Origin: a virus | Virus record (IMG/VR): IMGVR_UViG_3300042452_000346 | Location: 1-38,794 of that record | Direction: 5' to 3' (one strand) | Length of the DNA stretch: 38,794 bases | In this document: in pieces, positions 907-38,794 of the stretch | Numbering within the stretch: position 1 is the stretch's first letter | Layout: each line of letters starts with the position of its first letter | Translations under genes and position numbers: made by a program | Notes under the pieces: generated by a model | Database searches by the model: none | What the model was told of the DNA's origin: nothing | Seen by the model: the letters and a program-made list of their open reading frames with translations, nothing else

Positions 907-1971
907 ATGCCAATAGCTTCACCGCCAAATTCTCAAACAACTTATTTACAGCAGGGCAATCAGCAGGTTCTTGTTTCTTGGAACATTGTGCCCGGTGCTA
1001 CTTCCTACAACGTTTATAGAAATACGACAGGCATCGCTCCTACACTTCCTGCGACTCCTCATGCGACTGTCACAGAAGCTCAGTATTTAGACACTTCCCC
1101 TCTTTTAAATACTCAATATTGGTATTGGGTCACGTCAGTAAATGGTTCAGGAGAAAGCACAGTAACTGCTCCTACTCCTAACTCTATTATTCCCGTAGTT
1201 GCTGGCTATATGAGCTTGCAACAAATTAGAACTTTGTCTCAACAAAAAGCAGACCGAGTAAATTCTAACTTTATTACTCTTCCTGAGTGGAATTCTTACA
1301 TAAATCTAGCCGCTGACGAGCTTTACGATTTAATCACGACTATTTTTGAAGATTACAACATGTATGAGCCTGTTTATTTCACTACAAACGGGCAAACACA
1401 AAGTTATCCACTTCCTGACGGCGTTACAGTGTTTCAAAATGCAAACGGACAGAACATTGTTCCGCCTCCCATTTATAAACTGGCAGGAATAGACTTAGGA
1501 CTTAACAATGCGCCAAATGGATTTGTCACAGTTCAAAAGTATAATTTTATTGACCGAAACCGATATGTTTTCCCCAACACTGCATCGACTATTTATGGCA
1601 TCTTTGGTCTGCAATACAGATTTATCGGAAATTCTATTCGTTTCATTCCGCAACCATCATCTAGTCAACCTATTAGGGTATGGTACGTTCCACGAAGAAC
1701 CCAGCTCCTAAGAGAAAATGACGTTACTGACGGCTACAATGGCTGGACAAATTACATTATTGCTCGTGCTGCCAAGTACGCTCTTGATAAAGAAGAGTCT
1801 GATTCGTCAAAACTAGATGCAGAGCTAGTTTATTTAAAGCAAAGAATTGAAGAATCCGCTCCTAATCGTGATCAGGGTCAAGCCGACACGGTTGCGGACG
1901 GTAGAATGGCCTCTGGTTTCGGCCCTGATGGGGGCGGTGGCTGGCAGGGGCCTTTCGGAACGGGTTGGTAA
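907..1971 (+). CDS. Head-tail adaptor with N-terminal fibronectin type III-like domain
   Basis: This 354-residue protein has two parts. Residues about 10-100 have the sheet pattern of a fibronectin type III domain (VLVSWNIVPGATSYNVYR, then YWYWVTSVNGSGES). From about residue 110 (MSLQQIRTLSQQKADRVNSN) it looks like a podoviral head-tail adaptor: an early helix, PEWNSYINLAADELYDLI, a beta-rich middle with WYVPRR, and a late helical segment rich in charged residues. Adaptors of this type sit under the portal and receive the tail nozzle. The order capsid, small head protein, adaptor, appendage, nozzle supports this. ATG 907 has SD AGGTGG. The Gly-rich end overlaps the next start by one base. The FN3 domain may be surface exposed. 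Confidence 0.72.
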   Translation: MPIASPPNSQTTYLQQGNQQVLVSWNIVPGATSYNVYRNTTGIAPTLPATPHATVTEAQYLDTSPLLNTQYWYWVTSVNGSGESTVTAPTPNSIIPVVAGYMSLQQIRTLSQQKADRVNSNFITLPEWNSYINLAADELYDLITTIFEDYNMYEPVYFTTNGQTQSYPLPDGVTVFQNANGQNIVPPPIYKLAGIDLGLNNAPNGFVTVQKYNFIDRNRYVFPNTASTIYGIFGLQYRFIGNSIRFIPQPSSSQPIRVWYVPRRTQLLRENDVTDGYNGWTNYIIARAAKYALDKEESDSSKLDAELVYLKQRIEESAPNRDQGQADTVADGRMASGFGPDGGGGWQGPFGTGW

Positions 1972-3402: not shown

Positions 3403-6400
3403 ATGCCACTACAAAAGCAACAAGTTAGCATCAATTTTTCAAAGGGACTTGATACCAAATCAGATCCTTGGCAGGTTCCGCTTGGAAATTTTTTAGAACT
3501 AGAAAATTCAGTATTTAACAAAGCTGGATTGCTACAAAAAAGAAACGGATTTGAAGAAATAGCAGACTTTAGCGGGCTTGAAGTTACTTCTTTGGCAACA
3601 TTTAAAGAAGAACTGGTGGGACTAGGAAAAAACCTGTACGCCTACAGGCAGCAAGAAAACAATTTGATTAATAGAGGCAGATATCAGCCAGCGAAAGTAT
3701 CTGCTCAAAGTCTTTTAAGAAATAATTTTAATCAGGTTCAAGTTGATTCTGCTATCGGAGCAAATTCAACGGTTTGCCTTGCTTATACAGAGCAAACTTT
3801 TTCTGCTACCGAATACAAGTATTCCATAGTTGATTACAACACGGCTCAAGTTATTGTTAGCCCCACTACTTTAGCGGCAAGCGGAGGAGGAACCGTAATC
3901 GGCTCCCCTAAAGTATTTTCTCTTGGATTAAATTTTGTAATTATTTATCCAACTCTTATTGGTGGAACACAAACTTTACAATACATCACAGTTTACCAAA
4001 ACACTTTTGCAGCAACTTCACCAGTAACAATATCAAATGATTTTTATTATTCATCCAGGGGAAGCTTTGATGCGGTTGAAGCAAATGACACTCTGTACGT
4101 CGCCTGGGCGAGAGCTTCTGGTAATGGTATTTACGCAAGAACACTGACAGAAAATTTTATCTTCACTGCACCGGTTTTGATTCAGTCTGGGGTTATTGGT
4201 GATTATGTTGCAATTACCGCCGACACGACTCAAACAAACTTTGAAGCAATTTATATTGCAAGTTTTAGCGCTACCACCAATACGGCTTACATTTCTTCTC
4301 ACGATTTATTTTTAAATCAAATAGCCGCTCCTACTTTGTGGATTACAACCGGAGCAACAGACCAAGTAATAAACATCAGCTTGGTCGCTCAAAATCAAGT
4401 TTGTAATATTATTTGGGAAAGAGAAAACGTTTACGGATACGACTCGACAGCTCCCTCTAGCTATGTTCAAACTAGAACTTTTTCAAGAACTGGTGTCTTG
4501 GGAACTTCTCCTGGAACAACTGCGCTAGTTCGCTCTGTAGGACTGGCAGCTAAGGGATTTATTATTGATGGGGTTGTTTATTTTGTGGCGGCCTATCAAT
4601 CTGCTCAACAATCAACTTATTTTATCATCGACCTGCTTGGAAACATTGTAGCCAAGTACGCTTATCAAAACGGCGATGGATATGCTTATCTAGGACTGCC
4701 AAACAGTTGGGTAGACCAGAACACAGTAAGAATTCCTTATTTAATTCAGTTTTTTGTTAGGGCAATTAATAAAGATAACAACTCTCCGTTTCCTGGTCTT
4801 TATTCACAACTAGGAATTAATTTAGCCACCATAGAAATTGGTAATGTTCCAGTTTACACCGCAGAGCTTGGAAATAATTTGAATATGTCCGGTGGATTTT
4901 TATGGTCTTATGACGGAGCACTTCCAAACGAAAACAACTTCTTTTTGTATCCAGACAACGTAAAAGTATTAGGAATTGCTTACGATTCTACTTTTACTGC
5001 AAATTATTCAAACGGATCTAAAGTAGTAACCAACGTTTCAAGTTTAACAAACATAGCTGTAGGAACTAAAATATTAGCTCCTGGTCACTTAGTTGGAGCG
5101 ACTGTTTTAGAAATTTTATCCCCAACATCATTTGAGGTAAGTGTCGCGGCCACAGCGAGCGGAACAAGCGTTCCTAGTTATGTTCTTGGATTATTAGTTC
5201 CTGACACTTATGCCTACTCTGCTACTTATGAATGGACTGACAATCAGGGAAACATTATTAGAAGTGCGCCGAGTTTGCCGGTTCAATATGAAATAAAAAC
5301 ACCGCCGGTTAGTTTTACTGCTGACACAACAACCGGATCAAACGTTTTAAAAGATATTTCTAGTTTTAATGGTCTACAAGTTGGTCAATTGTTGTACTCA
5401 CCAACTCATTTGCCATCAGGAACTTACATCACCGCAATCAACGTAACCACCATAACAGTAAGTCAAAACGCGCTTTCTACCACAAACAATGCAACGATAA
5501 CCCCATACGCCGTTACCAAAACAACCATAGACATTCCAACTCTTAGACTTACTTACAAGCCCTCTGTAAAAATTTGTCTCTATAGAACAAGTGCGGCGCA
5601 ACCCGTATTTCATCTGACTGCAACTGTTTTAAATAGCAAAACAGTAGATTACATCAGCACTACAGACGTTCTTTCTGATGCAATGATAGCTAACACTGTC
5701 ATTTTGTACACGAACAGTGCTGTAGAAAATACAGCGGGGCCTCCCGCTGGCCCGATGACAATTTGGGATAATAGGCTTTGGGTAATAGACACAGAAGAGC
5801 CCAACAATGTTTGGTATTCAAAAGCAGTAATAGACGGTACGCCAGTAGAGGTAACAGATTTATTTACTTTTTATATTACTCCGACAAATGCGGCACAAGG
5901 TCCCACAAGCCCACTCAGGGGGCTGTCCGCGATGGATGACAAAATTATTTTCTTTAAAAGCGATGCCATGTACTACGTCAACGGTACTGGCCCAGACAAT
6001 TTAGGAAACAACTCCCAATATTCTCAACCCGTTTTGATTACAGGTACTGTCGGAAGCAGTTTACCTAACTCAATAGCTCCAATTCCTGAAGGATTAGTTT
6101 TCCAATCTGATAAAGGCATTTGGTTATTACAAAGAAATTTAGGCACTGTTTATTTGGGCGCTCCCGTTGAAGAATTTACCACCGGGGCACAGGCTGTATC
6201 GGCTCAAATTATTCCAGGAACAAATCAAGCAAGGTTTGTAATGAATTCTGGAATTATTTTGATGTACGACTACTTCTTTCAGCAGTGGGGTTCTTTTACA
6301 GGTTTAGACGCAATTGATTCTGTAAACTATCAGGGCTTACAAACCCTTTTAATGTCTGACGCTAGAGTAATGAGAGAGCTGCCAAATAGTTACAAGGACG

Positions 6401-9842: not shown

Positions 9843-12727
9843 TGGCAGAATTAACAAATACCGTTCCGTTGATGGGGCCAAGTGGCCTTTATCAAGCAAG
9901 TCCTGACGAAGTCGGGGTTTTGCTTTCTGCCGGATACAAAAAAGCAACGCCCGAAGAAATAGAATTTTCTACTCCTACTCAAACAGCTTTAGGAGTTGGC
10001 GAAGCAGTCGGTCGAGGTCTGTTAGGCCCAGTTTTTACTGGCGCTGAAAGACTGCTTGGCGCAGAACCAGAAAGAATAAAAGCCAGAGAAGAGATATCAG
10101 TAGGCCCAGGGCTTTCAACTGGTATCGAATTCGGCACCATGCTACTGCCTGGATTTGCCTTATCAAAAGCTGCAAAACTTGCCGAAGCTGGCGCTCAAGT
10201 TCCTAGCCTATTACAAAAAGTTGCAACGGCTAGCAAATTTACAACTGCCGGAGCTGCCGACATTTTAGGAAATGTTGCTGCTAAAGGAGTTGAAGGAAAG
10301 ATAGCAAAACTTGCTCTTAAATACGGAACCGAGGGCGCTCTTTTTAGCGTTCAAGATGACGTAGACCGAATGCTTATTTCTGACGAACCAGAAGATGCAA
10401 TTAAGGCAACCAACGGAGTTATTTTAAATGCCGGATTAAGTTTTTTGACCGGAGCTGGCCTAGGCGCAGGAATTGGAAAAGTATCAGAACTATGGAAAGC
10501 CAAAAACGCTTCTAAGGTTGCCAGAGCACTTGAGCAGTCAAAAATAGATTCTGAAGCCCCTGCCGTTGCAGGACTCGGCACCCCGGTTCCTACGCCCACA
10601 ACTGAAGCCGAAGTTTTAAAAGTTACAGAAGGATTGCCAGAACTAGAAAAAGTTCCTCTTGAGTCAAGGGCAGTCGTAGAAGATGCCGTTACAAGATTAG
10701 GTGACAAATTAAAAGTAAAGCCTCACGAAGGAATGCTTGCTGCCTTAGAAGACCCCGAAGCTAATAGGATTTTAAATACCGTTAGACAAAGGGGAGACAA
10801 ACTTGCTCAAGCTCAAAATACCTGGGAACAATACGTTAAAAAAGATGCCGTAGAGGGAATAAATAACGTTATTACAGCCCTTGGCCCTGCTGCTACTGCT
10901 GATGAAACAAGAAACGGATTAAAAGCCGTACAACTTATAAAAAACAACTACGAAAAAGTTCGTGGCGGTTTAGAAGGATTTTTCGATAAATTTAATAAAG
11001 TACAAACCAACCCAATAGCTTTTATTGGAAGCGTTACCGGAAGACTAGAAGAAGCGATTCCTGGCATAGGGGATTACCTACAATTTGACGGGTTAACCGG
11101 AAAAGTAAAATTAGCTCCTTGGGACGCAACTGCTCCATTTACAAAGAAAACTCACGCCGCTGCAAAAAATATAATAGATGCAATTAACCAAGAAACGCTG
11201 ACCATTGGAAAGCTCAGAAATGCTAGAAAAAATTTAACTCCCTACATTAACTATGTAACCGGAGATGCCGAGACAAATGCGCAAGTAGGAAGATTAAAAA
11301 AGTCCTTAATGGACATGATACAAGACGAAGTCGAAAAAGTTGATTCTTCTTTAAATGTCAGAGAAGCGTTTAAAACTTATGCGATAAATGAAGAAAGTTT
11401 AGAATCTTTAGAAAGAATTTTAGGCGGTAAAATTGGTGGAAAAGGCGTTACCGGAAAAGAAATCGTACCCGAAGATGTAATTAAAAAGATTTTTTCAAAC
11501 AGTGTTACCGTTGCTGATGCCAAAAGAATTTTAGGGGAAAAAGATTTTAATAACATTTTGGCCGACTATTTAATGCAAGCAGTAAAGTCAGTTACAGACC
11601 CAGATAAAAAAACCTTTTCTTCGGCTAGATTTAAAAACTTTTTAGTAAATAAAGCCCCAGAATTAGAAGCTGCGTTTGGAGATAATTTAGGAGCGCTTCA
11701 GGACCTCAAAGATTTCAACGCAATCATGAGAATCATTCCTGATGCTCAAGTTGCTAACCCTTCAAAAACCGCTCCTACATTAATTGAGCTAGCTAAACAA
11801 ATATTTAACGTAAGGCATTTATTTGAACCCGGAGCGGCTGCTACAAAACTGGGGGAAGTTCTTACTTCTCAAGTGTCTAAAGCTAAAACCTCTGCCGAGT
11901 TCAATGCAATCATGCAAGGCGCTGACAAAAAAGGCGGACTTGGATTTTATCGGTTTATTGATAACGCTCAGAAAATAAACGCTACCGCTTTTCAGGCGAT
12001 GCAAGATTACATTCAGCAAGCAGCAAGAGGAGCTTACTTATTACAAAAAGCTGCTAAAAACGTTTTTGAAACGGACAAAGAGCCGACAGTAAAACCAGTC
12101 GATAAAAAGAAATTAGAAAAATTAGACAGAAAAATTAAATCTTTAGAAAACAACATAGACGGTCACTTAGAGCTTGGCGGAGAAATTGGTTACTATATGC
12201 CTCAACATTCAACCGCTCTTGGAATGACTTCAATGAGAGTTTCTAGTTACTTAAATCAAAAAAGACCACAGCCTAAACCTATGGGAGCTTTAAGTAAGCC
12301 GCTTGAGCCAACAGCTGCGGAAATGTCCGATTACTATCGAACGCTTCAGATTGCAGAAAACCCTTCGATTATTTTTACAAAAATCAAAGCAGGGTCTTTA
12401 AATTCTAAAGACGTAAATGATTTGAAAAATATGTATCCAGAGCTTTACGCTCAATTTGCTACAGAAATCACAAATCAAATTGTAGAAGCTCAAACTAAAC
12501 AAAAGACCATTCCGTTTAAAGTTAAAAAGTCGCTTTCTTTATTTGCCGGACAGCCTTTAGATAACACGCTAGCTCCCGAAGCAATTCAGTCGGCGCAAGC
12601 AACTTATCAGCCGCAAGCAGAGCCACAAGCGCAAGAGCTGCCGCAGATGGCTAAAAAGAGTTCAAGAAAGAGTCAGTTACCAAAGCAAACTCAAACTGAT
12701 CAGCAAAGACGCATACTTAAAGAATAA
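9842..12727 (+). CDS. Large internal virion / ejection-type protein
   Basis: This encodes 961 residues, the second-largest protein in the window. The N-terminal region (residues 1-215) holds alternating glycine-rich hydrophobic stretches (ALGVGEAVGRGLLGPVFTGA; TGIEFGTMLLPGFALSKAAK; GVILNAGLSFLTGAGLGAGI) that could form membrane-inserting segments. Residues 270-760 are long charged helices. The C-terminal end is Gln/Pro/Lys-rich (LPQMAKKSSRKSQLPKQTQT). Size, helical content and position as the last gene before the fibre block resemble the giant internal proteins of podoviruses that span the host envelope during DNA entry. No lytic transglycosylase motif was found. The next 60 nt contain a regulatory element rather than a terminator. 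Confidence 0.6.
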   Translation: MAELTNTVPLMGPSGLYQASPDEVGVLLSAGYKKATPEEIEFSTPTQTALGVGEAVGRGLLGPVFTGAERLLGAEPERIKAREEISVGPGLSTGIEFGTMLLPGFALSKAAKLAEAGAQVPSLLQKVATASKFTTAGAADILGNVAAKGVEGKIAKLALKYGTEGALFSVQDDVDRMLISDEPEDAIKATNGVILNAGLSFLTGAGLGAGIGKVSELWKAKNASKVARALEQSKIDSEAPAVAGLGTPVPTPTTEAEVLKVTEGLPELEKVPLESRAVVEDAVTRLGDKLKVKPHEGMLAALEDPEANRILNTVRQRGDKLAQAQNTWEQYVKKDAVEGINNVITALGPAATADETRNGLKAVQLIKNNYEKVRGGLEGFFDKFNKVQTNPIAFIGSVTGRLEEAIPGIGDYLQFDGLTGKVKLAPWDATAPFTKKTHAAAKNIIDAINQETLTIGKLRNARKNLTPYINYVTGDAETNAQVGRLKKSLMDMIQDEVEKVDSSLNVREAFKTYAINEESLESLERILGGKIGGKGVTGKEIVPEDVIKKIFSNSVTVADAKRILGEKDFNNILADYLMQAVKSVTDPDKKTFSSARFKNFLVNKAPELEAAFGDNLGALQDLKDFNAIMRIIPDAQVANPSKTAPTLIELAKQIFNVRHLFEPGAAATKLGEVLTSQVSKAKTSAEFNAIMQGADKKGGLGFYRFIDNAQKINATAFQAMQDYIQQAARGAYLLQKAAKNVFETDKEPTVKPVDKKKLEKLDRKIKSLENNIDGHLELGGEIGYYMPQHSTALGMTSMRVSSYLNQKRPQPKPMGALSKPLEPTAAEMSDYYRTLQIAENPSIIFTKIKAGSLNSKDVNDLKNMYPELYAQFATEITNQIVEAQTKQKTIPFKVKKSLSLFAGQPLDNTLAPEAIQSAQATYQPQAEPQAQELPQMAKKSSRKSQLPKQTQTDQQRRILKE

Positions 12728-16373: not shown

Positions 16374-18965
16374 ATGGCCTTTATTAAAAATACCGACACC
16401 CTGGTAGAAGGTGCGTTGCAAAAGTTCTTTACAGAACAAAGAGCAAAAGACGCAGTTCAGCCAGAGTTATCACAATTAGATTCCGCAATTTCCGCTGAGG
16501 AAGTTGCTAGACAGAGTGCCGATAGCGCTATTGAAGGGCGCTTATCAACACTCGAAGGCAGTGGAGAAGGTTCCGTTGCTAAAGCCGAACAAGATGCTAA
16601 AGACTATGCTGATCAAAAAGTAGCAGACCTAGTCAATAGCGCTCCTGCTGTATTAGACACTTTGAAAGAATTGTCTGATGCATTAGGCGGTGACGAAAAT
16701 TTTGCTGTCACTGTTTCCAATCAAATTGGCGCAGTTGATGGAAAAGTTGACCAAGAAATCTCTGACCGACAAGCTGCAGTAAGTGCAGAACAAGGTCGCG
16801 CACAAGCTGCTGAAGAAGCCCTTGATGGTCGTTTGGATATCATCGAAGGTTCTGGCGAAGGCTCTGTAGCAAAAGCAGAACAAGATGCTAAGGATTACAC
16901 TGACGAAAAGATTGGTGACCTCGAAGGGCAACCTGACGTTGCTACTTACGTTGGACAACTATCTTCTTCTGTATTCGGTGCAATCTCTGCCGAGCAAAGC
17001 CGAGCAGAAGGAGCCGAAGGTGCTCTTAGTGGACGTCTTGATGCTTTAGAAGCTGACCCAGTAACTAAAGCCTACGTTGACGGCGAAGTAAGCACTCTTG
17101 AAGGTTCAATCAGTGCTGAACAGTCTGCAAGAGAACTTGCTGACTCTGCTTTAGACGGTCGATTAGATTCTTTAGAAGCTGATCCGACAACAAAGAGCTA
17201 TGTAGATAGCCAAGTAAGCGCCGAGCAATCACGCGCTGAAGGAGCTGAGAGTGCACTAGACGGACGTTTAGATGCGTTGGAAGCTGATCCTACTACAAAG
17301 ACCTATGTCGATGGGCAAATCAGCTCTGAGCAATCTGCACGTCAATCTGCAGACAGCGCTCTTAGCGGTCGCCTTGATGCTTTAGAAGCTGATCCGGTCA
17401 CAAAGACTTATGTTGACGGTGAAGTTTCTGATCTACAGGGACAAATTACTCAGGAAATTTCTGACAGACAGGGTGCCGTAAGCGCTGAACAGTCAGCTCG
17501 TGAAGCTGCTGATCAAGCTCTTGATGGCCGCCTCGATGTTCTTGAAAGCGATCCTACTACTAAGTCCTATGTGGACGGTGAAGTAAGTGACCTGCAAGGA
17601 CAAATCAACCAAGAAATCAGCAATCGTCAATCTGCCGTATCTGGAGAACAGTCCAGAGCTGAAGCCGCTGAAGCTGCTTTAGATGGCCGATTGGATTCTT
17701 TGGAAGCTGATCCAGTTACAAAATCATACGTTGATGGCGAAGTGTCAGACTTGCAAGGACAGATTGATAACGTTCTTAGCAACGTCGACGGCGCTGCTCT
17801 TGATTCTTTGACTGAAATCGTTGCTGCTTTCCAAGCTGCTGACAGCTCCTTAAACGGTGCAATCAGTTCTCTGTCTAGCGAACTAGACGGAAGAATCGAT
17901 GTATTGGAAGCTGACCCGACTACAAAAACTTATGTAGATGGTCAGATTTCTTCGGAAGCCTCTGCAAGAGCTTCCGCTATCTCAGCAGAACAGTCTCGCG
18001 CAGAAGGCGCAGAAGCTGCATTGGACGGTCGACTGGATGCTCTTGAAGCTGATCCAGTAACAAAGTCTTATGTTGATTCTCACGCTTCCGCTGAAGAAAG
18101 CGCAAGAGAAGCTCTGGAAAGTGCTCTTGATGCACGACTTGACGCTCTCGAAGCTGATCCGGTTACTAAGTCCTATGTTGACGGTGAACTCGCTGAAAAA
18201 GTTGATGTCACTGCTAACTATGACATTAAGCCTGCAATGTATCAGGGCGGATCTAAATCCGCTAACTTCCAAATCAACTGGGCTAACGGGCCTTTCCAAG
18301 AATTTACTCTTGGCGCAAGCTGCACCGTAACCTTTGCAAATCCTGTCACTGGCGGAAGCTACATGCTTAAGCTCGTACAAGATGGCACTGGAAGCCGACA
18401 AATCACTTGGCCTGCAAGCGTTGAATGGGCAAACGGTGAAGCTCCCACAATGTCTGGTGCTTCTAAAGTTGACTTCATTCAAATGGTCTATGACGGCTCA
18501 AGCTACTACGGTAACTACCAGCTAGAAGACGTAACCTTCGCAAAGAGCTCTGAGCTTGATGGGGAAGTTGCTGCTCTTGAAGCAATGGTAGAAGCTGAAG
18601 AAGCTGCTCGACAAGCTGAAGACCTAACCTTCTTCAAGCTAGACGGTAGCCGCGCAATGACTGGCGGATTGAAAGTTAAGCATGCTGAAAAGTCTGCTAG
18701 CTACACTCTGACAAGCTCTGACTACATTGTTGGAGTAACCAGTGTTGCAGGTGGAAAGACCATGACACTCCCTTCGGCTTCCGCTGAAGGCGCAGGAAAA
18801 ATGTTCATGATTAAGGATCAGTCTGGTTCGGCAAGCGAAAGCAATTATATCCGTGTTGCTGCTCCATCGGGACAAACTCTCGACGGTCAGTCTTACTACG
18901 ATATCAAAGTGCCTTACGAATCAGTTTCCGTTGTTTCTAACGGAAGCCACTGGTTCATCATCTAA
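16374..18965 (+). CDS. Long coiled-coil tail fibre with nine-copy shaft repeat
   Basis: This encodes 863 residues; SD AAGGAAAA precedes ATG 16374. The shaft (residues about 20-610) is a trimeric coiled coil made of repeats of the form SAEQSRAE.AE.ALDGRLDALEADPVTKSYVDGEVS. The unit LE(A/S)DP(T/V)TK.YVD occurs nine times, after two variant N-terminal units (LEGSGEGSVAKAEQDAKDY, IEGSGEGSVAKAEQDAKDY). A beta domain follows (about 620-720, NFQINWANGPFQEFTLG...ITWPASVEWANG), then a short coiled segment, then a tip domain ending in WFII. Position and architecture indicate the main receptor-binding fibre. Because the nucleotide repeats are similar, repeat number could vary between isolates. Confidence 0.85.
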   Translation: MAFIKNTDTLVEGALQKFFTEQRAKDAVQPELSQLDSAISAEEVARQSADSAIEGRLSTLEGSGEGSVAKAEQDAKDYADQKVADLVNSAPAVLDTLKELSDALGGDENFAVTVSNQIGAVDGKVDQEISDRQAAVSAEQGRAQAAEEALDGRLDIIEGSGEGSVAKAEQDAKDYTDEKIGDLEGQPDVATYVGQLSSSVFGAISAEQSRAEGAEGALSGRLDALEADPVTKAYVDGEVSTLEGSISAEQSARELADSALDGRLDSLEADPTTKSYVDSQVSAEQSRAEGAESALDGRLDALEADPTTKTYVDGQISSEQSARQSADSALSGRLDALEADPVTKTYVDGEVSDLQGQITQEISDRQGAVSAEQSAREAADQALDGRLDVLESDPTTKSYVDGEVSDLQGQINQEISNRQSAVSGEQSRAEAAEAALDGRLDSLEADPVTKSYVDGEVSDLQGQIDNVLSNVDGAALDSLTEIVAAFQAADSSLNGAISSLSSELDGRIDVLEADPTTKTYVDGQISSEASARASAISAEQSRAEGAEAALDGRLDALEADPVTKSYVDSHASAEESAREALESALDARLDALEADPVTKSYVDGELAEKVDVTANYDIKPAMYQGGSKSANFQINWANGPFQEFTLGASCTVTFANPVTGGSYMLKLVQDGTGSRQITWPASVEWANGEAPTMSGASKVDFIQMVYDGSSYYGNYQLEDVTFAKSSELDGEVAALEAMVEAEEAARQAEDLTFFKLDGSRAMTGGLKVKHAEKSASYTLTSSDYIVGVTSVAGGKTMTLPSASAEGAGKMFMIKDQSGSASESNYIRVAAPSGQTLDGQSYYDIKVPYESVSVVSNGSHWFII

Positions 18966-20982: not shown

Positions 20983-21025
20983 AGGGGGCTGACTCTATCT
21001 CACCTTTTCGGCCCCCTAGGGTTTT
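20983..21025 (+). terminator. Terminator closing the late/lysis block
   Basis: AGGGGGC (20983-20989) pairs with GCCCCCT (21011-21017), with a 21-nt loop, then AGGGTTTT. The T-run is short and offset, so efficiency is uncertain, but it lies exactly where late transcription should stop and on the opposite strand from the tRNA that follows. Confidence 0.65.
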
Positions 21026-21100
21026 GGCTGGCGCGGGCCGGGTCGAACGGCCATCGCCCAAGTTAACAGCTTGGTGCTTTACCAATTAAGCTACACGCCA
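21025..21100 (-). tRNA. tRNA-Asn (anticodon GUU)
   Basis: Read on the minus strand, a full cloverleaf is present. The acceptor TGGCGTG pairs with CGCGCCA over 7 bp with one G-T pair. The D arm is GCTT/AAGC. The anticodon stem CCAAG/CTTGG holds the loop CTGTTAA with anticodon GTT. The T stem is GGCCG/CGGCC with loop TTCGACC. Discriminator G and an encoded CCA (21027-21025) complete it. It is the only tRNA I found and lies opposite to all neighbouring genes, so it needs its own promoter in 21101-21150. It would supplement decoding of AAC/AAU codons. Confidence 0.9.
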
Positions 21101-30796: not shown

Positions 30797-31645
30797 TTAC
30801 CTTAATTGTACTTCTTTTTCTACAACTACATAAGCGGCTTCTTCACCAATTGAGTCACAGCCAAACGGCATTAGCGCATGACCCTTATCTCCCCAGGACT
30901 TGCCCCAAGAGTTTCGCATTATCCAGTTGCCGTCAGCAGTCCAGCCAATGAGGTTCACCATGTGATTTAACCCATTGTATTTACAGCCTTTCATGACGCC
31001 GCCTTTGTAATTATCCCATCTGCCATTGGCCCCTACTGCGACTGATACATAGCCTGATTGCATGATTGCGGCTTTTAGTTCATCAACTGTAGGACTTCTA
31101 TCGGGCGCTCCTAAGTTGTACCAAGATACAGGCTGAAGAACGCGCTGCTTTTTCTTCGCAGTGCAAATCTGATTGTAGGCCTTGTACGGATACAAAGCTT
31201 CGCTTGTAACCCCGTTTTTGACTAAATACGGGCCAGCGAAATTGCCTCCACGGCAGCCATACCACTCAGAATCGCAATCAACGATTTCTTGCTCGCTTGC
31301 TACTTCAACTTGATTGTTAAATATCAACGCAGCGCTTTCAAGATTTGCGACGGTTGAGAACGCCCAGCAGCTCCCACAAGCTCCTTGGTCTTTAATAGGC
31401 AAACTGAACCCTAAGTTACGCCAGTCAAAGCTGACTGGAAGGTACGCATTGGTTCTAGGATTCTTAAACACGCCGCCTTCAAGTAACCCGTGGCCTTCGT
31501 GGAGCTTGATGTAACCCGTTGCATACTTTGTGGGGCCTACGTCAATCGTCACGTTGTCAGGGGTTGTAGGTTTTGTGCCTGTACTATCACCGCAGCTAAC
31601 TAAAAAAAGCGTAAAAAACGCTAACAAACTAAACAGAATTTTCAT
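30797..31645 (-). CDS. Papain-like (C1A) cysteine protease lipoprotein
   Basis: This 282-residue protein is the only protein gene on the minus strand. The signal peptide MKILFSLLAFFTLFLVSC ends in a lipobox with Cys18, and +2 is Gly, which predicts the outer membrane. After a 50-residue spacer the papain fold starts at LPVSFDWRN. The catalytic set is intact: Q87 in KDQGACGSCWAFS, C93, H228 in NGLNHMVNLIGW and N245 in RNSWGKSWGDKG. Several further cysteines fit papain disulfides (C90, C124, C131, C161, C221, C263). AAGGAG precedes the ATG. Its isolation and opposite direction suggest an acquired accessory gene. A role at the host surface (exclusion of other phages, receptor removal, or predation-linked proteolysis) is inference. 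Confidence 0.92.
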   Translation of the reverse strand: MKILFSLLAFFTLFLVSCGDSTGTKPTTPDNVTIDVGPTKYATGYIKLHEGHGLLEGGVFKNPRTNAYLPVSFDWRNLGFSLPIKDQGACGSCWAFSTVANLESAALIFNNQVEVASEQEIVDCDSEWYGCRGGNFAGPYLVKNGVTSEALYPYKAYNQICTAKKKQRVLQPVSWYNLGAPDRSPTVDELKAAIMQSGYVSVAVGANGRWDNYKGGVMKGCKYNGLNHMVNLIGWTADGNWIMRNSWGKSWGDKGHALMPFGCDSIGEEAAYVVVEKEVQLR

Positions 31646-36759: not shown

Positions 36760-38563
36760 ATGGCTACATATGCTAGCAGTTCGAGTTCTATTGCAGTTCT
36801 TAAAGAATTGTATGTAGACAACTCGGATTTCATGAAGGACTTGGTTTATGCTAAACAAATTGGCCTTTTAGCAAGGAATTGCTAATTGCAGTACCCGAAT
36901 ATCGGTTAAAATCCGGCAGCGGACAAGACCGAAGCGTAAAACGTAAGAACTACGCTCGAACGACTGACAAGGGGTGCGAGAACCGCATGAGATACAGTCT
37001 GCTCTCACGCTATAACATTAGAAACGTGAGCTAACACAAAGGAAAAACCCTGCATTCGCTCTTATTCCGAAGAATGAATCTACGGAAGGGCTTGCTGGTA
37101 AGTATATTCCAGTTCCTATTCAATACGCTGATCCTATGGGTCGTTCGCATACATTTGCGAATGCTCAAGGCAATCAAACACCTAACCAGTACAATAGCTT
37201 CTTCGTGTACGTTATCCAGGATTACCAACTGGTAACAATCACTAACTTGCTCATTGAGCAAACAAGAAGCAATGCTGGTGCGTTCGTTGACGAAATGAAA
37301 CGTCAAATGGACGGGGGTAAACAAAAATGCCCAGCAGAGGAGCAATCCTTTGCTGCATAATCCCGAATATCGGTTAAAGGCCAGAAGTGGTTCAGACCGA
37401 AGCGTAAAACGTAAGAACTACGCTCGAACGACTGACAAGGGCTTCCCAAGTGGAAGGATATACAGTCTAGTCCTGCGATATAACAAAGAAGAAACGCAGG
37501 TATTAACGATAAAAAACTTGTCGAACAACATGGCTTTCGAGCTATTTGGTTCGGGAACAGCTACCCGTGGCGTAATTGGTTCTGCTATCACTAATCCTAG
37601 TGCTGGCGTTTACCAATTTACTCTGCAGAATCCACAGAACGTTGTTAATTTCGAAGTCGGGATGACAATCCAGGCTTCCGCAACTGACGGCGGCGCTGTC
37701 CTTCCTATATTAACTCCAACTGTTCCAGATTTGGGCACAGTGTCCTCTGTAAACCGTTCTACTGGCGTAATCCAGTTCACGGTTGCACAAGGAACACCTA
37801 ACTCAACCTGGGCAAACGGAAATTACATCACCGTACAAGGTGACATTCCGCCTGCTGGGGGTTCTGGATCAGGCCCATTAGGAGCTACTGGCTCTTACTT
37901 GGCTGCTTCTGGATTCTCTGCTTGGTTGCCTGCAACTGATCCTTCTCCCTCGGATTCTTTCTGGGGAGTAAATCGGTCTGTAGACCCAACCCGTCTCGCA
38001 GGACTGCGCTATGACGCAAGTTCCTACAGCATTGAAGAGGGCGTGGTTAACGCTCTTGGATTTGCTAACCGAGAAGGTGCAGACCCAGATACTATGATCC
38101 TAAGTTTCCAGAGCTACACCGCCCTGGAAAATGCACTTGGTAAACTTATGTGCCCAGCAATGGAGGAATCTCTTGCTGCATAATCCCGAATTACGGTTAA
38201 AAGCTAGAAGTAGCCAAGACCGTGGCGTAATTTACGCCCGAGAGACTGACAAGGGCTTCCAGAACGGAAGGATATACAGTCCGATCTCACACTATAACCT
38301 AATGAAATGTGAGCTAACACAAATGGCAAAAGTGCAATATGTGGACATTAAGCACGAAGAAGCTGCAATCGCCTTTGAAGGCATTCGCTTCCACAGTGCT
38401 TATGGCTATGTAACCGTATTTGCTGATCGCTCTGCGATTCCGCAAACCGGACTATGCCTGTCTATGGATACTTGGAAGCTGCGCTCTTTGGGCAAAGCTC
38501 CTCATATCCTCACTTACGGACTTGAAGGCCTTGAAGGTCTACGAGTCGGTAACAGTGATGCCT
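36760..38563 (+). CDS. Major capsid protein gene, interrupted by group I introns (exons 1-4)
   Basis: The start ATG 36760 has SD AAAGGAC. Exons read by keeping frame and group I rules (U before, G at the end of the intron) are 36760-36867, 37043-37318, 37509-38141 and 38326-38563. Joined, they read MATYASSSSS...AKQIGL | KNPAFALIPKNES...EMKRQMDGG | IKNLSNNMAFELFG...LENALG | AKVQYVDIKHEE...GLRVGNSDA, an uninterrupted HK97-type capsid sequence (family texts: GRSHTFANAQ, NFEVGMTI, MDTWKLRSLGKAP). Unspliced reading stops inside each of introns 1-3. A last exon lies at window 1-42. Inferred total is about 430 residues if the ends abut, slightly more if a piece is missing. Confidence 0.88.
36868..37042 (+). 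ncRNA. Group I intron 1 in the capsid gene (about 175 nt)
   Basis: This segment breaks the capsid frame between AKQIGL and KNPAFAL. It holds a group I core: P7 5' strand GACTG before ACAAGGG, the P8 hairpin TGCG..CGCA, then GATACAGTC as P7 3' strand. P9 is CTCACG/CGTGAG. P6 is AGCGTA/TACGCT. A hairpin AGCAA-GGAA-TTGCT near the start has a GNRA loop. Exon ends are uncertain by one base (after CCT or CCTT; before G or GA), but both give Leu-Lys-Asn. P1 pairing is less regular than in introns 2-4. No reading frame for an endonuclease. It shares 48 identical nt with intron 2. Confidence 0.88.
37319..37508 (+). ncRNA. Group I intron 2 in the capsid gene (about 190 nt)
   Basis: This splits the frame between MDGG and IKNLS. 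The 5' exon ends in GGGT, which pairs with the internal guide GCCC at about 37330 with the conserved U-G at the splice site. P2 is CAGCAG/TTGCTG-type with an inner AGGA-GCAA-TCCT hairpin. P6 is AGCGTA/TACGCT. P7 is GACTG/CAGTC around P8 CTTCC/GGAAG. P9 is CCTGCG/CGCAGG. The last base is G 37508. No endonuclease frame. The in-frame extension of exon 2 stops at TAA within GCTGCATAA. Confidence 0.92.
38142..38325 (+). ncRNA. Group I intron 3 in the capsid gene (about 184 nt)
   Basis: This splits the frame between ENALG and AKVQY. The 5' exon end GGT pairs with a GCC guide near 38153. P2 has a GGAA loop. P6 is GGCGT/ACGCC. P7 is GACTG/CAGTC around P8 CTTCC/GGAAG. P9 is CTCACA/TGTGAG. The last base is G 38325. 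The start and middle resemble intron 2; the end (GTGAGCTAACACAAA) matches intron 1 exactly. No endonuclease frame. Confidence 0.92.
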
Positions 38564-38794
38564 TGACTAAACTAGGGCATCTAAAATCTTCTCTGATTGA
38601 CTTGGAAGCCCGACAGGGTAACAGGGCGCAAGCGTATCAATACGCAGCGTGAACGACTAAGTGAGAAGACCCCGATAGGGGATGCGATAGTCTGAACTTG
38701 GCAAATAAATAAAAGCCAAGAGCCGAAGCCCGAAGCGGTGAGTAGGCCCGGTAAAGATACCGAGTAACAAAATGTAGAAGTCCGAGTCGGTGCT
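38564..38794 (+). ncRNA. Group I intron 4 in the capsid gene, 3' end beyond the window
   Basis: The exon end GATGCCT pairs over seven bases with GGGCATC (38575-38581), with a U-G pair at the splice site, giving a textbook P1. The core differs from introns 1-3: GACTAAG as P7 5' strand, ACCCCGATAGGGG as P8, then GATGCGATAGTC as P7 3' strand. CTTGGC/GCCAAG follows as P9, and a terminal ACCGA..TCGGT pairing lies near the window end. It is an independent group I intron. The 3' splice site is not in the window, or is at position 4 if the ends join directly. Confidence 0.88.

What the first reader, a model, noticed from the sequence alone, without database searches (positions are those of the whole stretch)
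36760..38794. Major capsid gene split by at least four group I introns
Seen: the capsid frame is broken at four places, each break begins after U and (for introns 1-3) ends in G, and each contains a P7/P8/P9-like group I core. Removing them restores one continuous HK97-type capsid sequence. Known: phage group I introns usually occur singly, with a few multi-intron genes such as Twort orf142. Four in one gene for the most abundant virion protein is unusual, because every capsid message must splice four times within the lytic cycle.
Basis: partly seen in the sequence, partly recalled or inferred. Interest (0 to 1): 0.92.

Follow-up and report, generated by a model that had tools for sequence, protein, structure and literature searches.

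The report
Capsid gene with four ribozyme introns
The main shell-protein gene of an uncultured phage is cut into five coding pieces by four very small group I (ribozyme) introns; related phages show that capsid genes are a favourite target of such introns, and some of those genes also carry 32-63 base 'guide-only' inserts that look like introns lacking the ribozyme itself.

Summary
Confirmed, with corrections. The HK97-fold major capsid gene starting at 36760 is interrupted by exactly four introns: 36853-37042, 37319-37508, 38142-38325 and 38564-38774 (190, 190, 184, 211 nt). All follow U and end in G. Boundaries come from near-identical alleles: L053 lacks introns 1-3 and shares intron 4; others lack all four. 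Splicing restores a 439-residue capsid protein. Introns 1-3 are one small family, intron 4 a second; both have a covariation-supported group I core, no endonuclease gene, and no Rfam group I score. In IMG/VR both families sit mostly in major capsid genes of several families, at 26 positions in this gene family alone. Splicing and mobility are inferred, not shown. Relatives exposed something stranger: 32-63 nt inserts with no ribozyme core, a guide complementary to the ligated exon junction (G opposite the splice-site U in 16/16), a 3'-site hairpin, and a full-length intron shortly downstream. They look like guide-only group I introns spliced by a neighbour's core, a natural 'spliceozyme'. None was found in the window.

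The parts
36760..36852 (+). major capsid protein, exon 1 (93 nt)
36853..37042 (+). group I intron 1 (type A, 190 nt, no ORF)
   Evidence: absent in L053 at this exact point; covariation core; R1 hit 205.5 bits
37043..37318 (+). major capsid protein, exon 2 (276 nt)
37319..37508 (+). group I intron 2 (type A, 190 nt, no ORF)
   Evidence: absent in L053; R1 hit 192 bits although not used to build R1
37509..38141 (+). major capsid protein, exon 3 (633 nt)
38142..38325 (+). group I intron 3 (type A, 184 nt, no ORF)
   Evidence: absent in L053; R1 hit 210 bits; exon differences clustered around it
38326..38563 (+). major capsid protein, exon 4 (238 nt)
38564..38774 (+). group I intron 4 (type B, 211 nt, no endonuclease gene); 100% identical in L053 and L069, absent in L054, L055, L057, L060
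38775..38794 (+). major capsid protein, start of exon 5; continues through an 18-nt contig gap into the first bases of the window (stop after LLSA)
   Evidence: L072 bridge

Best explanation
The capsid gene carries four compact self-splicing group I introns of two families. In each pre-mRNA the last nucleotides of the 5' exon (GCU, GGGU, GGU for I1-I3; GAUGCCU for I4) pair with an internal guide, with a U.G wobble at the splice site; guanosine bound in P7 attacks after that U; the freed U attacks after the intron's last G, aided by P10 pairing with the 3' exon. Four rounds join five exons into one mRNA for a 439-residue HK97-fold capsid protein. The introns have no homing endonuclease gene and none is recognisable elsewhere in the genome, so they most likely spread as DNA by recombination between co-infecting phages (tracts of donor exon arrive with them) and reach new sites by reverse splicing into the capsid mRNA, an abundant late message, which needs only a 3-4 nt match. 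Shown: exact insertions, conserved core, guide pairing, purifying selection on the joined frame. Inferred: splicing itself, selfish near-neutral status, the route of spread.
For: Precise absence of I1-I3 in a 95-99% identical allele and of all four in other alleles. Type A core: 26 of 46 pairs with compensatory changes, 0/500 shuffles; RNAalifold finds the same helices unaided. Type B core: 29 of 50 pairs with compensatory changes, including P1 and P3. P10 longer than with shuffled 3' exons: type A 30 vs 16.5 bp, 0/5000; type B 27 vs 13.4 bp, 26/5000. 31:1 synonymous to non-synonymous codon differences from L053, and 12 of 36 nucleotide differences lie within 30 nt of the I3 junction, a co-conversion-like footprint. 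Distant type A relatives align weakly with RF00028 (L049, 23 bits; L045, 21.6 bits) and R2 finds I1 weakly (E 0.0018). No HNH, GIY-YIG or LAGLIDADG hit among 39 ORFs. Host genes: type A introns whose gene could be read are in major head proteins of four PHROGs, with L014 portal-like and L038 unresolved as exceptions; type B: 28, 17 and 9 of 89 flanking ORFs match major head protein PHROGs 283, 1357 and 9953. 26 distinct insertion positions in this capsid family.
Against: No RNA data. Rfam RF00028 does not hit any of the four introns even at E 10. P1 of I1-I3 is only 3-4 bp and P3 only 3 bp, so a protein or folding helper may be needed. The clustered exon changes at I3 favour DNA recombination for that copy rather than fresh reverse splicing.
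Confidence: 0.93

Rival explanations
1. The segments are bypassed by the ribosome (T4 gene 60-like coding gaps) rather than removed from RNA.
For: Each segment brings an early in-frame stop, as a bypassed gap would.
Against: 184-211 nt against 50 nt in gene 60; complete covarying group I cores; I4 splits a codon; [quoted passage not shown]
Confidence: 0.02
2. The gene is a decaying pseudogene or an assembly artefact, with the insertions as junk.
For: Metagenome contig; the window breaks inside the gene.
Against: L072 repeats the same arrangement without a difference; intron 4 is identical in contigs from two other datasets; 31:1 synonymous to non-synonymous differences; insertions are exact and structured.
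Confidence: 0.03
3. They are group I introns, but they home by an endonuclease acting in trans (free-standing or encoded by another phage), and reverse splicing plays no part in their spread.
For: Some relatives' capsid genes carry larger introns with an HNH-like reading frame (L044, L050, L189; read by eye); exon differences cluster at I3; trans or collaborative homing is a known pathway (PMC3984707).
Against: One family occupies many unrelated sequences in different capsid families whose only evident shared feature is a short site matching the guide; no endonuclease found in this genome.
Confidence: 0.4
4. The introns are kept because they regulate capsid synthesis (timing, or an alternative C-terminus from unspliced intron 4), not as selfish elements.
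For: Unspliced intron 4 leaves an open frame giving a different C-terminus.
Against: Introns come and go between near-identical alleles, and the alternative C-terminus replaces a conserved strand.
Confidence: 0.08

Closest known systems
Group I introns of Bastillevirinae phages (PMC11878797)
   Same: Group I introns interrupting phage genes; up to three in one gene; eight of nine genes tested were spliced.
   Different: Those are mainly in DNA polymerase and terminase, mean 802 nt, commonly with an endonuclease ORF, and found by models of known introns; here four of 184-211 nt, no ORF, in the capsid gene, not found by Rfam.
Staphylococcus phage Twort orf142 introns (from memory)
   Same: Several group I introns in one gene of a phage.
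   Different: Three rather than four, and a different gene.
Reverse-splicing spread of rDNA group I introns in fungi (PMC1299323, PMC3984707)
   Same: Related introns at many sites of one very abundant RNA.
   Different: Here the crowded target is the capsid mRNA of phages; PMC3984707 states that direct experimental evidence for the pathway is lacking.
Engineered group I spliceozyme (PMC4509937)
   Same: A group I core removes a short intron that has no core of its own.
   Different: Engineered from Tetrahymena. The mini-inserts described here are natural and carry their own guide; their splicing is inferred.
T4 gene 60 translational bypass (PMC5009743)
   Same: Short non-coding gap beginning in a stem-loop inside a phage gene, compared with the mini-inserts.

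Membership tests
group I intron (introns 1-4) | 5' exon ends in U, paired as U.G with the guide in P1 | tested here: met
   UG in 12/12 type A; all 15 type B exons end in U with a guide helix starting at G
group I intron (introns 1-4) | intron ends in G | tested here: met
   I1-I4 all end in G at the homology-defined junction
group I intron (introns 1-4) | P3-P8 core with P3/P7 pseudoknot and P4-P6 domain, supported by covariation | tested here: met
   P3 of type A is only 3 bp and invariant in A3, with other pairs seen by eye in distant relatives
group I intron (introns 1-4) | P7 guanosine site with bulged nucleotide | tested here: met
   bulge column 116 in A3; the pair next to it is AU in 9 and GC in 3; not examined separately for type B
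group I intron (introns 1-4) | P10 pairing of guide and 3' exon | tested here: met
   30 vs 16.5 bp (type A), 27 vs 13.4 bp (type B) against shuffled exons
group I intron (introns 1-4) | match to Rfam RF00028 (a detection test, not a defining feature) | tested here: not met
   no hit at E 10 for the window introns; distant type A relatives score up to 23 bits, below gathering
group I intron (introns 1-4) | guanosine-initiated self-splicing | not testable with these tools
   needs RNA
HK97-fold major capsid protein | HK97 fold and head-gene context | tested here: met
   AF2 of intronless allele L054, pLDDT 82; hits to SU10, A-1(L) and HK97 capsids and to an Arthrobacter phage MCP (TM 0.71-0.76); phrog_9953; portal and terminase upstream
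translational bypass (for the mini-inserts in relatives) | landing codon matches take-off codon | tested here: not met
   triplets flanking the gap differ in all 16; m2, m5 and m6 split a codon
guide-only group I intron (proposed kind; mini-inserts in relatives) | P1 with U.G, P10 and terminal G, but no room for a core | tested here: met
   16/16; covariation of P10 and the 3'-site hairpin in 8 variants of m6
guide-only group I intron (proposed kind; mini-inserts in relatives) | removal from RNA by the core of another group I intron | not testable with these tools
   needs RNA; only the close spacing to a full-length intron is seen

The most novel reading that the evidence does not exclude
In relatives of this phage (L020, L044, L050, L168, L178, L189, L284, L343, L345) and in two other capsid families (L219, L280 and about 20 more contigs; L264, L205), capsid genes contain 32-63 nt inserts that carry only a 10-15 nt guide complementary to the ligated exon junction and, in most, a hairpin holding the 3' splice site in its loop. 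They have no catalytic core, and in the copies examined a full-length intron, or another insert followed by one, lies shortly downstream. The most novel reading is that they are non-autonomous group I introns excised by the core of the neighbouring intron: a natural counterpart of the engineered spliceozyme.
Probability: 0.6. Interest if true: 0.97.

Novelty: new variant of a known kind. Interest (0 to 1): 0.82.

Why it matters
Capsid mRNA is usually taken to be among a phage's most abundant late messages, yet here it would have to splice four times. The two intron families are tiny, endonuclease-free, missed by the standard model, and concentrated in capsid genes of several families. That gives a system to test whether group I introns spread by reverse splicing into abundant mRNAs, for which a review says direct evidence is lacking. 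The coreless mini-inserts in relatives would, if spliced, be naturally occurring introns served by another intron's ribozyme, a step previously only engineered and relevant to how a trans-acting splicing machine could begin.

Tried and rejected
Rfam gathering and E<=10 searches gave no intron call in the window, group I or group II; the one weak hit, cow-rumen-1 RNA inside intron 1 (17.7 bits), was not pursued. First AF2 run on 12 sequences was poor (pLDDT 42) and was repeated with 38. A de novo screen for mini-inserts by guide pairing plus frame restoration gave 462 candidates in 3 Mb and is too unspecific to use; only inserts defined by homologous uninterrupted genes are counted. Bypassing was rejected for the mini-inserts on landing codons, codon splitting and G opposite the splice-site U in 16/16. 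Against 200 shuffles the second hairpin is individually weak in several copies (for example L189 m3 and m4, L050 m1 and m2), so it is claimed with confidence only for m6, where covariation supports it. No annotated phage relative in GenBank; the single genome-contig hit is 42% identical in an Actinomycetales MAG, so the host is unknown. No search was made of papers outside the held open-access library.

Full report
WHAT WAS CHECKED. The window is a 38794-base virus record. The gene starting at 36760 follows portal and terminase genes and encodes a major head protein. Uninterrupted alleles were fetched from IMG/VR. L053 is 95-99% identical over the exons and lacks introns 1-3; L054, L055, L057, L060 and others also lack intron 4. 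These alleles fix the junctions: 36853-37042, 37319-37508, 38142-38325, 38564-38774. Every intron follows U and ends in G. The joined frame is 439 codons; its last part crosses an 18-nt gap between window end and window start that contig L072 fills.

WHAT IT IS. Introns 1-3 (type A) are 74-80% identical to each other. A scan for their core found 49 IMG/VR stretches. Twelve delimited type A introns (A3) give P1, P2, P3 (pseudoknot) and P4-P9 with 97.6% of cells paired, 26 of 46 pairs with two-sided changes and 0 of 500 shuffles as good; sliding partners by 1-3 columns destroys the signal. RNAalifold finds the same helices unaided. The 5' splice site is U.G in 12 of 12. Intron 4 (type B) gives a second alignment with P1, P3-P6, P8 and P9 covarying, 29 of 50 pairs with two-sided changes. 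3' exons pair with the guide (P10) more than shuffled exons do. Rfam's group I model finds none of the four; distant type A relatives L049 and L045 are hit weakly, and model R2 finds intron 1 at E 0.0018. The strong RF00028 hit in L021 (78.5 bits) is a different intron on that contig. The capsid identity is supported by an AF2 model of the intronless allele L054 (pLDDT 82) matching HK97-type capsids.

HOW IT BEHAVES. Codon differences between window and L053 are 31 synonymous to 1 non-synonymous, so the joined frame is under selection. Twelve of 36 nucleotide differences lie within 30 nt of the intron 3 junction, as expected if intron 3 arrived with donor exon sequence. Intron 4 is identical in L053 and L069 from other datasets. 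None of 39 window ORFs matches a homing endonuclease family in Pfam. Verified junctions in this capsid family fall at 26 positions, and three positions are used by different intron types. In the capsid search, which did not select for introns, 6 of 34 contigs carry at least one capsid intron. Outside the window's clade, type A introns whose host could be read are in major head proteins of PHROGs 9953, 267, 138 and 283, with L014 portal-like and L038 unresolved. Distant type A relatives sit in other genes, by eye including ribonucleotide reductase and tape measure genes. My reading is selfish introns moving between phages by recombination and reaching new sites by reverse splicing into abundant capsid mRNA. 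The second half is inference.

BEYOND THE WINDOW: CORELESS MINI-INSERTS. Aligning relatives to uninterrupted capsid proteins showed 32-63 nt inserts with stop codons or frame changes. Sixteen copies at seven sites in three capsid families were delimited: m1 (AG^K) L020, L044, L050, L343, L345; m2 L050; m3 (ESP^DGF) L168, L178, L189, L284; m4 L189; m5 L168; m6 L219, L280; m7 L264, L205. All start after U and end in G. Each carries a guide of 10-15 pairs complementary to the ligated exon junction, for example ATACTTGCCCGC against gcgggt^aagtat, with G rather than A opposite the splice-site U in 16 of 16. Random T|..G| intervals reach 12 pairs in 0.25% and 13 in 0.08% of draws. P10 totals 84 bp against 28.6 with shuffled exons. 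In all 16 the triplet before the gap differs from the triplet ending it, and m2, m5 and m6 split a codon, which argues against ribosomal bypassing. A scan for m6 gave 20 stretches with eight distinct sequences (counting L219 and L280), and the type B core motif follows in each of the eight. On those eight, P10 position 17-55 occurs as UA, GU, AU and CG and hairpin position 32-76 as UA, AU, CG and GC, tracking synonymous exon changes; 0 of 500 shuffles reach the covariation score. Two scans that did not ask for a neighbouring intron, for m3 and m1, gave 11 capsid loci (L168, L178, L189, L282, L283, L284; L020, L044, L343, L345, L360), and each has a full-length intron downstream. In most delimited copies the separating exon is about 21-34 nt; it is longer in m7 and where another insert comes first (read). 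Some of the downstream introns are a larger type with an HNH-like frame whose group I nature is my inference (no Rfam hit). No mini-insert was found in the window. I infer that the neighbouring core removes them; splicing is unproven.

COMPARISON. A survey of Bastillevirinae phages found up to three group I introns per gene, mean 802 nt, mostly in DNA polymerase genes (PMC11878797). A review notes that the reverse-splicing pathway lacks direct evidence (PMC3984707). An engineered Tetrahymena spliceozyme removes a 100-nt intron in trans (PMC4509937). I found no report in the held library of capsid-centred, endonuclease-free families or of natural coreless group I introns; subscription literature was not searched.

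Noticed in passing
L020:5626-5658, L044:2445-2476, L050:1801-1833 and 1898-1960 (-), L168:8072-8118 and 10572-10617, L178:2618-2657 (-), L189:3322-3363 and 3412-3448 (-), L284:803-842, L343:4101-4133, L345:13662-13694, L219:3294-3334, L280:181-214, L264:10423-10460, L205:1260-1300 (-): Coreless 32-63 nt inserts in capsid genes with a guide to the ligated exon junction (G opposite the splice-site U in 16/16) and a full-length intron downstream: candidate non-autonomous group I introns.
   Followed up: yes
type A: L009, L017, L018, L023, L026, L031, L163; type B: loci L165-L281: Two small endonuclease-free group I intron families sit mostly in major capsid genes of several families.
   Followed up: yes
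L030:5318-5329: 12-nt micro-exon (TADA) between a type A and a type B intron in the capsid gene; the spliced frame fits homologues.
   Followed up: partly
window 38142-38325 and L020:6886-7089: The same capsid position (ALG^AKV) is occupied by a type A intron here and a type B intron in L020; positions 54 and 58 likewise host two types.
   Followed up: partly
window 38564-38652: Reading through intron 4 stays open for about 29 codons, giving a capsid with a different C-terminus if unspliced.
   Followed up: no
window 1 and 38794: Contig L072 joins window end to window start across 18 missing bases, so the genome is circular or circularly permuted, about 38.8 kb.
   Followed up: yes
window 30797-31645 (-): Papain-family C1 cysteine protease (Pfam E 1e-47) with an N-terminal stretch resembling a lipoprotein signal; unexpected in a phage of this size.
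   Followed up: no
window 36899-36937: Weak similarity of the intron 1 P4-P6 region to Rfam cow-rumen-1 RNA (17.7 bits, E 0.84); worth asking whether that family is a fragment of such introns.
   Followed up: no
window 21025-21100 (-): tRNA-Asn (GTT) gene.
   Followed up: no
window 17151-17413 within ORF 16374-18965: 105-base tandem repeats in a long repetitive ORF, likely a tail fibre.
   Followed up: no
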